Source: Deltaproteobacteria bacterium (GTDB lineage: Bacteria > Myxococcota > Myxococcia > Myxococcales > Myxococcaceae). Taken from it: a DNA stretch of 10,027 bases. A model generated the notes under the pieces. It did not search any database and had not been told where the DNA came from. It saw only the letters and a program-made list of their open reading frames with translations. Position numbers and translations under genes: made by a program. Position 1 is the first letter of the stretch, and each line of letters begins with the position of its first letter. Below are positions 1,592-9,991 of the stretch, piece by piece. The stretch is from positions 1 to 10,027 of the forward strand of contig VGRA01000055.1 in NCBI GenBank assembly GCA_016875515.1. Direction: 5' to 3'.

Positions 1592-2920
1592 TCAGAAGCG
1601 CTCTATCTTGAAGTCATCCCCGGCGGCCGGCTCGGACGGGGAGGCAGGGCGTGTGGGCGGCTGTTCCTGCGCGGCGGCGGCCGCGGCAGGTGCCGGGACC
1701 GTGGGACGGGCGCGCGGGAGCCCCTGGCCGGCGGCCGGGACCGGCTGGGTGGCGGATGCGGCGGCGCGGGACTTCGCCTGCAGGGCCCAGGCATCCGCCT
1801 CCCGGGCGGCGGCGGTGCCGTCAAAGTCGTCCCACTTGCTGTCCGAGGTGCCGCTGATGCCGGCCAGGCGCAGCGCGAAGTCGTCCGGGTTGGTGGCCTG
1901 GCGCTTGGCCTCGTCCATGGTGATAAGCCCCTTCTGCACCAGGGACATGAGGCTCTGGTCGAAGGTCTGCATCCCGTAGGAGGTGTGGCCCTGGGAGATG
2001 GCCTCGTGGATTTCGCGCGTGCGGTCCTTGTCCTCGATGAGCTCGCGGACGCGGGCGGAGCTGCGCAGCACCTCCACGGCGGGGACACGCCCCTTTCCGT
2101 CCGCGCGCGGCACCAGCCGCTGGCTGATGACCGCCTTGAGCACGGAGGAGAGCTGCAGGCGCACCTGCTTCTGCTGGTGCGGGGGGAAGGCGCCGATGAT
2201 GCGGTTGATGCTCTCGGTGGCGTCCAGGGTGTGCAGCGTAGACATGACGAGGTGGCCCGTCTCCGCCGCGTTGAGCGCCGTCTCGATGGTCTCCAGGTCC
2301 CGCATTTCGCCGACGAGGATGACGTCAGGATCTTGCCGCAGCGCGCTCTTCATGGCGTGGCCGAACGAGTGGGTGTCCACCCCCACCTCGCGCTGGTTGA
2401 CGACGCACCGCTTGTCACGGATGAGGAACTCGATGGGGTCCTCGATGGTCATGATGTGACCGGCCTCGTTGGCGTTGATGTAATCCACCATGGAGGCCAG
2501 GGTGGTGGACTTGCCGGAGCCGGTGATGCCGGTGACCAGGACCAGGCCACGCTCCTCCTTGGCAATTGGCTCCACCACCGCGGGCAGGGCGAGCTCCTGC
2601 ACGGAGGAGATCTTCACCGGGATGACGCGCAGCACCATCCCCATGGCGCCGCGCTGCATGAAGACGTTGACGCGGAAGCGGCCCAGACCGGCCACGCCGA
2701 AGCCCAGGTCCACCTCGTTGGTCTGCTGGAACTTCGCCCGCTGGGCCTCGCTCATGGTGCCGAGCGCCATGCGGGAGACCTCCTCGCCGGACAGCCGCTG
2801 GGCGTTCTTGAGCGGGACGAGCGCGCCGTCCACGCGGAACATGGGCGGCAGCCCCACCTTGAGGTGGATGTCCGAGGCACCGCCACGCACCGCGACTTGA
2901 AGGATGTCCGAGAGTTCCAT
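1592..2920 (-). CDS. pilT: PilT-family type IV pilus retraction ATPase, paralogue with extended C-terminus
   Basis: A 442-residue secretion-type hexameric ATPase that would power type IV pilus retraction at the inner-membrane base of the machine. The N-terminal domain (1-100) has the typical GASDIHLKVGLPP. The ATPase core shows Walker A GITGSGKST (131-139), the Asp box TIEDPIEF (158-165), Walker B DPDVILVGEMRD (197-208) and the His box HLVMSTLHT (223-231). The segment matching PilT's AIRNLIRE retraction motif reads ARVRELIED (289-297), a diverged form. PilT is usually about 345-370 residues. This one continues with an Ala/Pro-rich, probably disordered tail (about 365-434) ending in DDFKIERF. 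No other pil genes are adjacent, so it is probably a stand-alone paralogue, close to PilU/PilT2-type proteins, rather than the main pil-cluster enzyme. The start matches family N-termini although no clear Shine-Dalgarno precedes it. Family assignment is firm; the exact role is not. Confidence 0.93.
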   Translation of the reverse strand: MELSDILQVAVRGGASDIHLKVGLPPMFRVDGALVPLKNAQRLSGEEVSRMALGTMSEAQRAKFQQTNEVDLGFGVAGLGRFRVNVFMQRGAMGMVLRVIPVKISSVQELALPAVVEPIAKEERGLVLVTGITGSGKSTTLASMVDYINANEAGHIMTIEDPIEFLIRDKRCVVNQREVGVDTHSFGHAMKSALRQDPDVILVGEMRDLETIETALNAAETGHLVMSTLHTLDATESINRIIGAFPPHQQKQVRLQLSSVLKAVISQRLVPRADGKGRVPAVEVLRSSARVRELIEDKDRTREIHEAISQGHTSYGMQTFDQSLMSLVQKGLITMDEAKRQATNPDDFALRLAGISGTSDSKWDDFDGTAAAREADAWALQAKSRAAASATQPVPAAGQGLPRARPTVPAPAAAAAAQEQPPTRPASPSEPAAGDDFKIERF

Positions 2921-6046: not shown

Positions 6047-6589
6047 GTGCGCGTCCCCCTGCTCGTGGCCGCCCTGGCAGGGCTGGCCGGCTGCCGCTCC
6101 GCCCCGGAGGCGCCGCTCCCGCCTGCCGCCGCGGTACCGGGATCCATCTACTTCACGGTGCTGCGGGGCTACCTGCCGAAGGGCCTCCCCGGATGGACGG
6201 CCGGCCCCCCGCCCGAGGGCTCCACCGGGAAGTACGGGGACGTGGCGGTGAGCGAGGTGGAGGCGGTCTTCATGCGGGAGGCGTCCCGCAAGCTGTCCGT
6301 GCGCATCGTGGACACCTCCCTCATTGACCGGCTGGGGCCGGCCATCCGGTCCGCGGTGGAGGGGGCCTCCGGCCGGGCAGAGGAGGACCCCACCGCCCCG
6401 CTGCGCCTCCCGCCGCACGCGCTCGGCTTCGTCCGCTTCGACCGGGAGGAGCGCCACGGCGAGGCCAACCTGCTGGTGGGGGACCGGTACGTGGTGGCGC
6501 TGCAGGCAGACGGCTTCCCGGACACGCAGGAACTCCGGCAGGTGGCCCGGGCGCACCTCGACCTCGCAGGGCTGGCCGCCCTGCGCTAA
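6047..6589 (+). CDS. Predicted lipoprotein of unknown function
   Basis: A 180-residue protein whose first 16 residues form a short signal peptide, with hydrophobic LLVAALAGLAG ending in the lipobox LAGC (Cys16). A Pro/Ala linker (about 18-31) and a soluble domain follow. The domain runs YFTVLRGYLPKGLPGWTAGPPPEGS, then alternating strand-like stretches (KLSVRIVDTSLIDRL, ALGFVRFDREER, ANLLVGDRYVVALQADGF) and a C-terminal helix. The LPxxLPGW opening and the LVGDRxxV segment remind me of envelope proteins of unknown function that bind nothing known; this is recollection, not a search. The GTG at 6047 is chosen because it puts the signal peptide at the very N-terminus. The longer upstream frame runs antisense through the helicase gene. 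The ribosome site is weak (TTGAG). The Cys-array gene follows after 12 bases, so the two probably share a transcript. Confidence 0.8.
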   Translation: MRVPLLVAALAGLAGCRSAPEAPLPPAAAVPGSIYFTVLRGYLPKGLPGWTAGPPPEGSTGKYGDVAVSEVEAVFMREASRKLSVRIVDTSLIDRLGPAIRSAVEGASGRAEEDPTAPLRLPPHALGFVRFDREERHGEANLLVGDRYVVALQADGFPDTQELRQVARAHLDLAGLAALR

Positions 6590-6601: not shown

Positions 6602-7063
6602 ATGAGCACTGCCGCCGAGGAGACCGAGGCCCGCGCCCGCATTGCCCAGCTGGGCCGCCGGGAGTTCCAGCAGTGGCTGGGGGAGCTGCAGCGCGGCGCG
6701 GGCACCCGGCCGGAGAACCCGGGCTCCTACGCGTGCGAGGACTGCACGGGCTGCGTGGAGTGCAACTTCTGCAAGCGCTGCGAGGGCTGCACCCGCTGCA
6801 CCCACTGCGCGGACTGCACCCGCTGCCACGGCTGCAGCCACTGCAGCGGCTGCATGGGCTGCCATGGCTGCTCCCACTGCGTGCAGTGCGAGCAGTGCAC
6901 CGGCAGCGCCTACCTGGTGATGTGCCGGGACCTGTCCGACTGCACCTACTGCCTCGGGTGCGTGGGGCTCAGCCGGAAGGACTTCCACGTCCTCAACGTC
7001 CCGTTCAGCCGCACCGAGTACTTCGAGGTGGTGGCGCGGCTGAAGCGGGAGCTGGGGCTGTAG
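6602..7063 (+). CDS. Cys-array protein with every-third-residue cysteine repeat, function unknown
   Basis: A 153-residue protein with 23 cysteines. A helical N-terminal part (1-40, with RREFQQWLGELQ) leads into an unbroken run of 19 cysteines spaced exactly three apart, from Cys45 to Cys99. A gap (TGSAYLVM) is followed by Cys108, 114, 117 and 120, all still in the same three-residue register. The last part (121-153) is cysteine-free, with FHVLNVPFSRTEYFEVVARL. Every Cys codon is TGC. Residues between cysteines are mostly polar, Gly or His. There is no signal peptide or membrane segment, so the protein is probably cytoplasmic. The pattern suggests dense metal (zinc or iron-sulfur) binding or a stacked beta-helix-like ladder; neither is shown. 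I recall similar myxobacterial proteins labelled 'caib/baif family', a label with no visible basis here. The start is ATG without a visible Shine-Dalgarno, 12 bases after the lipoprotein stop and in the same frame. Confidence 0.85.
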   Translation: MSTAAEETEARARIAQLGRREFQQWLGELQRGAGTRPENPGSYACEDCTGCVECNFCKRCEGCTRCTHCADCTRCHGCSHCSGCMGCHGCSHCVQCEQCTGSAYLVMCRDLSDCTYCLGCVGLSRKDFHVLNVPFSRTEYFEVVARLKRELGL

Positions 7064-7573
7064 CTACTTCCGCCGGGCGGCCGTCTTCTTCGCGGCCGTC
7101 TTCTTCGCGGCCGTCTTCTTCGCGGCCGTCTTCTTCGCGGCCGTCTTCTTCGCCGTCTTCGCGGCGCGCTTCGCACCGGCCTCCACGAAGTACGTCCGCA
7201 TGGGGACGAAGTAGTGCTCCTCCCAGCCCTGCTCGTAGGCGTCTGCCTGCCCCTCGGGGATGTCGGTGTGCCGCAGGGTGATGCGGGTGCCGCCCGCGTC
7301 CGGGTCCAGCAGCACCTCCAGCAGGGAGGGCGGGTGGCCCTCCGGGAATTCGGACGTTCTCCAGGACTGGAGGATGCGGCGCCCGGGCTCCAGCTCCAGG
7401 TTGGCCCCGGTGATGTAGCCGTCCCAGGCGTAGAAGACGCCGTCCACGCCGGGCTGCACGCTGGCCTCGGCGCCGGTCAAGGCCGAGTGCGCCCTGGAAT
7501 CCAGCCACGCCCGGTACAGCGCCTCCGGCGCCACCGGCAGCCACGTCGACACTTCCAGCTCTTCCGTCTTCAT
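7064..7573 (-). CDS. SRPBCC/AHSA1-family protein with a Lys-Ala-Thr repeat tail
   Basis: A 169-residue protein. Residues 1-132 form an SRPBCC (START-like, AHSA1) domain: the opening VSTWLPVAPEALYRAWLDSRAHSALTG, the GVFYAWDGYITGANLELEPGRRILQSWR core, TRITLRHTDIP and the final helix GWEEHYFVPMRTYF. Such domains hold hydrophobic ligands in a deep pocket, and no ligand can be named here. Residues 133-169 are a strongly basic tail with five tandem KKTAA units ending in ARRK. It resembles histone H1-like and HU-type tails that bind nucleic acid. GGAGGGG (minus strand, 7576-7582) just before the ATG supports the start. It is the last gene of a minus-strand operon, 13 bases after rlmI. Its TAG stop abuts the stop of the converging Cys-array gene. 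Confidence 0.9.
   Translation of the reverse strand: MKTEELEVSTWLPVAPEALYRAWLDSRAHSALTGAEASVQPGVDGVFYAWDGYITGANLELEPGRRILQSWRTSEFPEGHPPSLLEVLLDPDAGGTRITLRHTDIPEGQADAYEQGWEEHYFVPMRTYFVEAGAKRAAKTAKKTAAKKTAAKKTAAKKTAAKKTAARRK
7077..7151. repeat. Five perfect 15-bp tandem repeats encoding KKTAA
   Basis: The unit GCGGCCGTCTTCTTC occurs five times head to tail without a mismatch (7077, 7092, 7107, 7122, 7137). A shortened related copy follows at 7152-7166. On the minus strand each unit reads Lys-Lys-Thr-Ala-Ala in the tail of the SRPBCC gene. Exact identity suggests recent expansion and probable copy-number variation between strains; changes of one unit keep the frame. Confidence 0.97.
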
Positions 7574-8779: not shown

Positions 8780-9991
8780 TCACTCCAGTCCCCGCGCGGC
8801 CAGCTCCGAGTCGTCCTCGCCGCGCAGGTGGCCCAGCTCGTGGACGAGCGTGGTGCGCACCTGCTCCGCCAGCTCCTCCTGCGTGCCCACCGCGCGCAGG
8901 AGGTTCAGCCGGTAGAGGGAGATGGACCGGCAGGGCATGCCGGGGGACTCCGGCACGCAGGGCTCGCCGAGGGGCGGGCCGCGGAAGATGCCCAGGATGG
9001 TGGGCGAGAGCGGCGGATCGTTCACCAGCAGGTCCGCGTCCGACGGGAGGTCCTCCGCGGTGACGGGCACGCCCTGCAGGTCCCGCTTCATGTCCTCTGG
9101 CAGCCCGGCCAGCGCCCCGTCCAGCAGCGCCTGGAAACGCTCCGGCGAGGCCACCACCGGCGGCGGGAAGTCCTGGGGGTGCAGCTTCCGGGCGGTGGCG
9201 AAGTGCGCCTCCGCCTCGGCCTGCCGCCCCTTGCGCTCCAGCACTTGCCCGAGGTGCTGGTGCGCGTGCGCCGCCTGCTCCGGGTCACCCAGCCGCGCCT
9301 CGAAGGCGGCCTTCGCCTCGCCGAAGCGGCACAGCTCGAACAAGGCGAGCGCGCGCTCCCACGCCGCCTCCGGGTCTGCCGGCGCGGCGGACAGCACCCC
9401 CTCCGCGTACGAGAGCGCCTGGCTGGCCAGCCCCAGGTCGTTGGCGGCCATGGCGGACAGCACGCCGAAGCGCTGCACCCGCTCTGCGTCCCCCTGGGAG
9501 GCGGCCAGGTGCAGCCCGCGCTCGGCGTACAGCATCCCCAGCTCGTCGTGCTCGCGGCCGCCCGGCAGGGCCACCGTGTACAGGTGCGCCGCGCCGGCCA
9601 GCCCCTCCAGCCCGTCCGGGTCCAGAGCCAGCGTGCGCGCCCAGGCCAGCTTGGCCTCCTCGTACCGGCCGAGGGCCGTGAGAGCCGTGGCGCGCTCGGC
9701 GTGGGCCTCCGCCCGGCTGGGGGCCAGGGCCGAGGCGCGGGCCGCGCAGGACAGGGCCTTCTCGTACTCCCCCTCGTCGTACCAGGCGCGCGCCGCCTCC
9801 AGCGGGCTCTCGTCCCGGGTCTCGCAGAGCGAGAGTGGCGCATGGCCGTGCCCGTGTTCCCGCGGCGGGAGGGGCGCGGGGGACGGCGGCGCTGCCACCG
9901 CGGCCGGGGCGGGCGCTGCCACCGCGGGCTCCGTCTTCTTGCAGCCGGCCGCGAGGGCCAGCGCGGCCAGGGCCAGCAGCGGGGCCCTCAT
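8780..9991 (-). CDS. TPR lipoprotein with C-terminal zincin-like metallopeptidase domain
   Basis: A 403-residue exported protein. The signal peptide (1-16) ends in AAGC with Cys17 as probable lipid anchor; the lipobox has Ala where Leu is usual at -3. A Pro/Ala linker with a small HGHGH cluster (46-50) leads to about five TPR-like units (63-270), such as ARAWYDEGEYEKALSCAARA and AHAHQHLGQVLERKGRQAEAEAHF. The C-terminal domain (about 283-403) matches the 'metallopeptidase family' minimal zincins: FQALLDGALAGLP, the NDPPLSPTILGIFRGPPL strand pair, SISLYRLNLLR and the active-site motif HELGHLRGEDD (384-394). That motif supplies two His ligands, Glu385 as base and a downstream acidic third ligand. 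Such domains usually form small stand-alone cytoplasmic proteins, so an enveloped TPR fusion is unusual. Its stop overlaps the rlmI start region, and its start overlaps the stop of an upstream gene. Substrate unknown. Confidence 0.9.
   Translation of the reverse strand: MRAPLLALAALALAAGCKKTEPAVAAPAPAAVAAPPSPAPLPPREHGHGHAPLSLCETRDESPLEAARAWYDEGEYEKALSCAARASALAPSRAEAHAERATALTALGRYEEAKLAWARTLALDPDGLEGLAGAAHLYTVALPGGREHDELGMLYAERGLHLAASQGDAERVQRFGVLSAMAANDLGLASQALSYAEGVLSAAPADPEAAWERALALFELCRFGEAKAAFEARLGDPEQAAHAHQHLGQVLERKGRQAEAEAHFATARKLHPQDFPPPVVASPERFQALLDGALAGLPEDMKRDLQGVPVTAEDLPSDADLLVNDPPLSPTILGIFRGPPLGEPCVPESPGMPCRSISLYRLNLLRAVGTQEELAEQVRTTLVHELGHLRGEDDSELAARGLE
8783..8786 (-). promoter_or_regulatory. 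Ribosome binding site of rlmI
   Basis: GGAG on the minus strand overlaps the final codons of the upstream gene and sits five bases before the ATG at 8777. It favours that start over the GTG at 8783, whose own first base belongs to this motif. Confidence 0.65.

What the first reader, a model, noticed from the sequence alone, without database searches (positions are those of the whole stretch)
6734..6961. Nineteen cysteines in a perfect every-third-residue run, with four more in the same register
Residues 45-99 have Cys at every third position without a break, and Cys108, 114, 117 and 120 keep the same phase: all 23 cysteines fall on residue numbers divisible by three. This is not the usual paired CxxC of zinc ribbons or the CxxCxxCxxxC of ferredoxins. 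A three-residue period would place all thiols on one face of a polyproline-II-like or beta-helical rod. That would suit a metal-thiolate chain, a disulfide ladder or a redox sink. The conserved-looking flanks (RREFQQWL before; FHVLNVPFSRTEYF after) suggest a defined fold rather than low-complexity drift. It is the best candidate here for an undescribed function.
Basis: partly seen in the sequence, partly recalled or inferred. Interest (0 to 1): 0.82.

Follow-up and report, generated by a model that had tools for sequence, protein, structure and literature searches.

The report
Cysteine-cored bacterial beta-solenoid protein
A small myxobacterial protein has a cysteine at every third position because it is predicted to coil into a narrow spring-like rod whose core is lined with cysteines; it belongs to a large, uncharacterised bacterial family, and its job is still unknown.

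The parts
6602..7063 (+). 153-aa Cys-triplet protein gene (CYS), ATG to TAG
   Evidence: homologues
6611..6700 (+). N-terminal two-helix segment, residues 4-33 (contains conserved F22, L29)
   Evidence: AF2 helices 4-16/19-33, 4-15/19-33; conservation
6725..6970 (+). predicted 12-residue-per-turn beta-solenoid, residues 42-123; every third residue inward
   Evidence: AF2 block pLDDT 83-98 from residue 41 to 120; structural match to 1ezg over residues 44-124
6734..6898 (+). unbroken run of 19 Cys at every third residue, 45-99
6923..6961 (+). four further in-phase Cys: 108, 114, 117, 120
   Evidence: positions 114, 117, 120 are Cys in 119, 122, 124 of 125, position 108 in 71 of 125
6767..6949 (+). 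aromatic/His ladder on one face: F56 (6767-6769), H68 (6803-6805), H80 (6839-6841), Y92 (6875-6877), Y104 (6911-6913), Y116 (6947-6949)
   Evidence: 98% aromatic/His, lowest entropy of the outer phases; each is the first residue of a predicted strand
6962..7060 (+). C-terminal cap and tail, residues 121-153 (VGLxxKDFHxLNxPxxRxEYF...), shared with the Patescibacteria family
6047..6589 (+). upstream same-strand hypothetical lipoprotein-like gene, 12 bases before CYS; not shown to belong to the system (relative found in 29 of 80 loci)
   Evidence: (no Pfam hit)

Best explanation
The protein is a short, probably cytosolic beta-solenoid rod of about seven 12-residue turns (residues 42-123). The chain advances in triplets, one residue in and two out, so each turn has four inward positions, and Cys (or Ser, Leu) is used there because the lumen is too narrow for larger side chains. 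The Cys array is therefore mainly a structural core. The rod is capped at the N-terminus by two helices and at the C-terminus by a conserved cap and tail, and it displays an aromatic/His ladder on one face. I infer that the ladder and the C-terminal motif are a docking surface for a protein or nucleic-acid partner. Shown by computation: register, its conservation, predicted turn length, structural match, homology of the cap. Inferred: inward pointing (from the strand pattern), cytosolic location (no signal peptide seen by eye), reduced thiols, docking role.
Against: No experiment. Foldseek alone gave no significant PDB match (best E 1.6e-2; 1l1i E 0.59). AF2 pTM is 0.65 and the C-tail is poorly modelled (block pLDDT 50-67), so cap and ladder contacts are unknown; the ladder might only pack against the protein's own helices. 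Such a high share of Cys rather than Ala, Val or Thr is not explained by packing alone. Patescibacteria relatives have further conserved outer aromatics off the ladder phase (positions -41, -32, -14 from the cap Leu), so the ladder correspondence there is not unique. No partner gene is conserved across lineages.
Confidence: 0.55

Rival explanations
1. Metal-thiolate store: the Cys-lined lumen binds Cu(I), Zn or another soft metal, in effect a beta-solenoid counterpart of bacterial copper-storage or metallothionein proteins.
For: About 20 Cys on average per member, most facing one lumen if the models are right; Patescibacteria relatives have treble-clef-like ends, so thiols there are probably reduced and metal-competent.
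Against: Inner Cys are exchanged for Ser and Leu at many positions; Cys count in the array ranges from 13 to 24; no metal transporter or metal regulator was recognised among the few neighbours identified, though one two-domain ABC ATPase of unknown substrate lies upstream in 4 of 29 far loci; no Pfam/NCBIfam hit.
Confidence: 0.2
2. Disulfide-laddered rod: inner Cys pair as disulfides within turns, as recalled for the Tenebrio antifreeze protein, giving a very stable rod or a redox sink.
For: Closest solved match is 1ezg, disulfide-cored as recalled; joint loss of neighbouring Cys at 75/78 and 84/87; even Cys counts are somewhat in excess, 75 even against 50 odd; two i,i+6 pairs correlate, 69/75 r 0.48 and 60/66 r 0.47.
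Against: No signal peptide is apparent in the sequence (by eye), so oxidising export is unlikely; Cys count is odd in 50 of 125 members (weighted 18.7 of 49.4); mean correlation of Cys presence is 0.008 at i,i+6, the pairing recalled for 1ezg, against 0.169 at i,i+3.
Confidence: 0.15
3. Low-complexity drift: the array is a slipped repeat at DNA level without a fold.
For: Short-period DNA repeats of 9, 18, 27 and 36 bp are detectable within 6750-6898.
Against: The repeats are imperfect (70-91% matches); 125 family members keep the phase, at 41-87% identity for the 90 in A2; outer positions are conserved with period 12; AF2 is confident in the array.
Confidence: 0.02
4. RNA- or translation-linked factor: the aromatic face binds tRNA, rRNA or a translation protein. 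This is a special case of the best explanation.
For: A D-Tyr-tRNA deacylase gene (Pfam-tested in L078) lies next to CYS in 10 of 29 far loci, its start overlapping the CYS stop by 4 bases in 6, and a TsaD/TsaB-type gene in 6 of 29; in Cystobacterineae CYS lies near rplM-rpsI and an RlmI-like gene; 2 of 120 listed Patescibacteria relatives are named 'Zn ribbon nucleic-acid-binding protein' by their source.
Against: The deacylase neighbour is absent in 34 of 34 loci taken from genomes of the window's own phylum outside its family; ribosomal genes are common neighbours of anything.
Confidence: 0.2

Closest known systems
Tenebrio molitor antifreeze protein (PDB 1ezg, 1l1i; Pfam AFP PF02420)
   Same: 12-residue turn, triplet register with Cys-rich inner positions, rod of about seven turns
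   Different: No Pfam AFP match in the window protein (1 of 38 members at E 0.11); outer ladder is F/H/Y rather than the Thr-x-Thr ladder (recalled for the beetle protein); nearly all four inner columns are Cys; no apparent secretion signal; conserved C-terminal tail beyond the aligned part. The half-turn register between the two is undetermined. Probably convergent (inference).
Patescibacteria (CPR) proteins of about 550 aa; at least 7995 proteins scored in one search; 18 of the 120 listed carry an organism name, all CPR groups
   Same: Homologous cap: profile-profile probability 99.0, E 2.5e-18; C-tail HMM without the Cys array hits 115 of 120 at E<1e-3 and 0 of 720 reversed or shuffled controls; same triplet rule
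   Different: Those have two solenoid segments each with a cap (both caps anchored in 100 of 120) and treble-clef-like ends (4 of 4 scanned at E<0.01, above the curated cut-off in 2 of 4; precomputed Pfam in 12 of 120); fewer Cys in the core. The window protein is one segment with no zinc-finger match.
'Caib/baif family protein' as a database name in myxobacteria and in Campylobacter virus IBB35
   Same: Name carried by 3 of 120 listed members of this family and by a phage protein found by fold comparison (E 6e-5, TM-score only 0.29-0.31)
   Different: The name suggests CaiB/BaiF CoA-transferases (recalled), for which no Pfam match exists here; it looks like a misnomer.
phrog_15341 and Campylobacter phage IBB35 Cys-triplet proteins
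   Same: Every-third Cys arrays; PHROG match E 1.8e-12 over residues 43-125; phage ORFs with 45 in a row and with 26 of 26 Cys in phase
   Different: Matches cover the array, not the C-terminal tail; almost no ladder aromatics (1 of 45); homology versus convergence is not separated.

Membership tests
Insect antifreeze protein (Pfam AFP, TmAFP) | beta-helix with 12 residues per turn | tested here: met
Insect antifreeze protein (Pfam AFP, TmAFP) | sequence match to the Pfam AFP repeat model | tested here: not met
   0 families for the window protein at E<=1; 1 of 38 members at E 0.11; profile against PDB 1ezg E 0.017 and 0.025
Insect antifreeze protein (Pfam AFP, TmAFP) | outer Thr-x-Thr ladder on the ice-binding face (feature recalled) | tested here: not met
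   repeating outer ladder is F/H/Y
Insect antifreeze protein (Pfam AFP, TmAFP) | in-turn disulfides (recalled) | not testable with these tools
   no coordinates or redox data; odd Cys count in 50 of 125 speaks against full pairing
Patescibacteria solenoid family | C-terminal cap motif after the solenoid | tested here: met
Patescibacteria solenoid family | triplet register with small inner residues | tested here: met
   window family; Patescibacteria
Patescibacteria solenoid family | terminal treble-clef zinc fingers | tested here: not met
   no PF13451/PF23477 hit in the window protein at E<=1
Zinc ribbon / ferredoxin | match to any such Pfam or NCBIfam model | tested here: not met
   0 families at E<=1
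CaiB/BaiF CoA-transferase (database name) | match to the Pfam CoA-transferase family III model | tested here: not met
   0 Pfam families at E<=1
Copper-storage or metallothionein proteins | metal binding by the Cys | not testable with these tools
   needs metal analysis; no Pfam hit
Pentapeptide-repeat protein | match to the repeat model | tested here: not met
   0 Pfam families at E<=1; period is 3/12
Pentapeptide-repeat protein | same fold | tested here: inconclusive
Known anti-phage defence protein | match to a PADLOC model | tested here: not met
   0 families at E<=1

The most novel reading that the evidence does not exclude
A cytosolic solenoid whose lumen is a continuous stack of reduced thiols, four per turn, that carries or stores a soft metal, persulfide sulfur or electrons along its axis, while the aromatic face docks it to its client: a thiol wire or sulfur/metal store of a kind not described in the papers I could search.
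Probability: 0.13. Interest if true: 0.87.

Novelty: new variant of a known kind. Interest (0 to 1): 0.62.

Why it matters
It explains a striking sequence pattern by a simple geometric rule (triplet solenoid with a very narrow lumen), links a single-copy gene found in 127 of 195 sampled genomes of its phylum to a very large unexplained protein family of Patescibacteria, and suggests that antifreeze-type narrow solenoids with near-all-Cys cores occur in bacteria and in a phage with 45 Cys in a row. It makes the open question directly testable: are some 20 buried thiols in a cytosolic rod reduced, paired or metallated, and what does the conserved aromatic face bind?

Tried and rejected
Zinc ribbon, ferredoxin, CoA-transferase, pentapeptide repeat and defence protein: no family matches. 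Function from neighbours: among the 80 loci, a UvrD-like ORF lies in 47, a RlmI-like in 44, both in 39 (several contigs are short, so these are lower bounds); the deacylase lies in 10 of 29 far loci and in 0 of 34 later loci; BadF-type activase (5 of 29; 7 of 34), M23 peptidase (6 of 29; 7 of 34) and inositol monophosphatase (5 of 29; 6 of 34) are also lineage-bound. Many of the 34 later loci lie on the same contigs as the far loci, so the two sets are not independent. No universal partner. Covariation of Cys loss at i,i+6 (across-turn disulfides): mean correlation 0.008 over 18 pairs against 0.169 over 20 pairs at i,i+3, not corrected for phylogeny; single i,i+6 pairs reach 0.48. Viral contigs: no relative in two scans; tblastn against phages gave nothing for P0001 and one weak partial hit for P0216, low-complexity filter being on. 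Direct Foldseek against the PDB was not significant. A first anchoring of the Patescibacteria motif was wrong (regular-expression error, last part) and was replaced; those numbers are not used. The half-turn register to 1ezg could not be settled: the sequence alignment puts the beetle strands against the other face than the one I had assumed. A match with two TAG codons in one relative (G188) turned out to read into the stretch before its start codon, so it is no anomaly. Papers: ten searches; none listed a paper that I recognised as describing this family; the slash in 'caib/baif' cannot be searched, so the name may be in print unseen.

Papers seen: PMC2853527 and PMC3322345, passages by term only ('cysteine' occurs 0 times in both main texts); all others in search listings only.

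Selections: alignment A1 used 38 rows (window protein and all 37 hits, one of them an 85-aa fragment). A2 used 90 of the 125 proteins P0001-P0125; the 35 that I left out are mostly over 180 aa, or have deletions, or are near relatives of rows kept. A3 used 24 of the 120 listed Patescibacteria proteins; Pfam was run on 4 of the 120. Searches used all 125, which are the window protein and the proteins listed (only 120 of 542 were listed). One search anchored the motif in 106 (first helix) and 113 (second helix) of 120 proteins. Neighbour families were grouped by BLAST; Pfam was run on one representative each (10 proteins).

Full report
Observation. The ORF 6602-7063 (+) encodes 153 residues. All 23 cysteines fall on multiples of three, 19 of them in an unbroken run 45-99, then 108, 114, 117, 120. 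Shuffling residues 45-120 100,000 times never gave one phase for all, with a longest run of 10. The finding's coordinates are exact.

Family. A protein search found 37 relatives, and a profile search 542 at E<=0.001, of which 120 were listed. Three of these carry the source name 'caib/baif family protein', although the window protein matches no Pfam or NCBIfam model at E<=1. In the window's own genome, which is 87% complete, there is one match; in its phylum 127 of 195 genomes have it, each with one match. Among genomes at least 90% complete and at most 5% contaminated it is 107 of 149, and by genus 52 of 90, so it is widespread but dispensable in some lineages. The genome-contig scan found 141 encoding stretches, 80 kept, with myxobacterial, Deltaproteobacteria or Proteobacteria record titles and one titled Comamonas.

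Register. In 125 proteins 99.6% of Cys lie in one phase; the longest unbroken run is 5 to 19, median 11; 3 of 125 reach 19. So the perfect run is an extreme of a conserved triplet rule. Weighted composition of the inner positions is Cys .733, Ser .155, Leu .094, all others under .01. Near-invariant Cys include C48, C63, C72, C99, C114, C117 and C120 (119 to 124 of 125).

Outer surface. With sequences weighted (effective n 49), the outer phase containing residues 56, 68, 80, 92, 104, 116 has mean entropy 0.46, lower than the inner phases (0.53-0.60) and far below the other outer phases (1.27-2.79); 98% of its residues are F, Y, W or H; 1 of 20,000 permutations reached so low a phase. The period equals the predicted turn. 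In the 45-Cys phage array only 1 of the 45 residues before a Cys is aromatic or His, so the array can exist without the ladder.

Deeper kinship. Eighteen of the 120 listed carry an organism name, all CPR groups. Four were scanned with Pfam: all four have a treble-clef match at E<0.01 near an end, above the curated cut-off in two. Profile-profile comparison with the window family: probability 99.0, E 2.5e-18, aligned from the second N-terminal helix to the C-tail. Because Cys-rich profiles can match falsely, I built an HMM from residues 121-153 alone: it hits 115 of 120 at E<1e-3, against 0 of 720 reversed or shuffled controls, and twice in 49 proteins. In these proteins the triplet rule holds before each cap: in the first helix inner positions are 93% small or aliphatic with 48% Cys and outer positions have 0% Cys; in the second helix 86% with 32%, outer 3%. 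Aromatic positions recur at -28 and -16 from the cap Leu in the first helix (93% and 82%), 12 apart; allowing for one missing triplet, as in the alignment, these would correspond to Y92 and Y104 (my mapping). Other outer aromatics (-41, -32, -14) are conserved there too and do not lie on that phase, so the ladder correspondence is suggestive only.

Phages. A fold comparison with viral models returned a Mimiviridae protein (E 1e-7), an unnamed protein (E 3e-5) and an IBB35 'Caib/baif family protein' (E 6e-5), with low TM-scores. PHROGs returned phrog_15341 at E 1.8e-12. In the IBB35 contigs a profile search found two ORFs, one with 45 Cys in an unbroken every-third run and one with 26 of 26 Cys in phase. 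Two phage genome papers do not contain the word cysteine in the main text (term passages only). Two viral-contig scans and two tblastn searches of phages gave no convincing relative.

Neighbours. In many Cystobacterineae loci the order PilT-like, rpsI, rplM, UvrD-like, hypothetical, CYS, RlmI-like, TPR-zincin is kept; of 80 loci 47 have the UvrD-like and 44 the RlmI-like ORF. Elsewhere the neighbours change: M23 peptidase, inositol monophosphatase and a two-domain ABC ATPase in the Anaeromyxobacter lineage, a BadF-type activase in others, D-Tyr-tRNA deacylase in 10 and a TsaD/TsaB-type gene in 6 of 29 far loci. The deacylase start overlaps the CYS stop by 4 bases in 6 loci. There is no universal partner, so neighbours do not give the function.

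Mechanism. Best reading: a narrow 12-residue solenoid whose core is built of Cys, Ser and Leu, capped at both ends, with a one-faced aromatic/His ladder and a conserved C-terminal tail as docking surface. Against a full disulfide ladder: odd Cys number in 50 of 125 (though even counts are in mild excess), no apparent signal peptide, and joint losses at i,i+3 more than at i,i+6. Against a stoichiometric metal site: frequent Ser/Leu replacement. Neither is excluded for part of the Cys, and the heavy preference for Cys over Ala, Val or Thr remains unexplained.

Verdict. Observation confirmed and strongly conserved; fold predicted with good support; family already in databases under what looks like a wrong name, function unknown. 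New variant of a known kind of fold, interest 0.62.

Noticed in passing
window 7064-7573 (-), repeat at 7077-7153: AHSA1-like protein (PF08327, E 1.6e-17) ends in a histone-like Lys/Ala tail made by a perfect 15-bp tandem repeat, 5.1 copies: an AHSA1 domain with an apparent variable-length, possibly DNA-binding tail.
   Followed up: no
L126 (HM246721) 19436-20002 (-): Campylobacter phage IBB35 ORF with 45 Cys in an unbroken every-third run, longer than the window's; annotated hypothetical protein.
   Followed up: partly
L128 (HM246723) 2449-2892 (-): Second IBB35 ORF with 26 of 26 Cys in one phase and a similar N-terminus.
   Followed up: partly
L070, L072, L073, L076, L078, L081: CYS stop overlaps by 4 bases the start of an ORF of the D-Tyr-tRNA deacylase family; a TsaD/TsaB-type gene lies upstream in 5 of these 6.
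   Followed up: partly
window 8780-9991 (-): Lipoprotein-like TPR protein with a C-terminal zincin-like metallopeptidase domain (PF06262, E 8e-22).
   Followed up: no
window 1592-2920 (-): PilT-like ATPase (named from sequence by eye, no family search run) with an Ala/Pro-rich C-terminal extension, next to rpsI/rplM.
   Followed up: no
L010: Record titled Comamonas sp. KCTC 72670 carries the myxobacterial gene order around CYS: probably a mislabelled or contaminated assembly.
   Followed up: no
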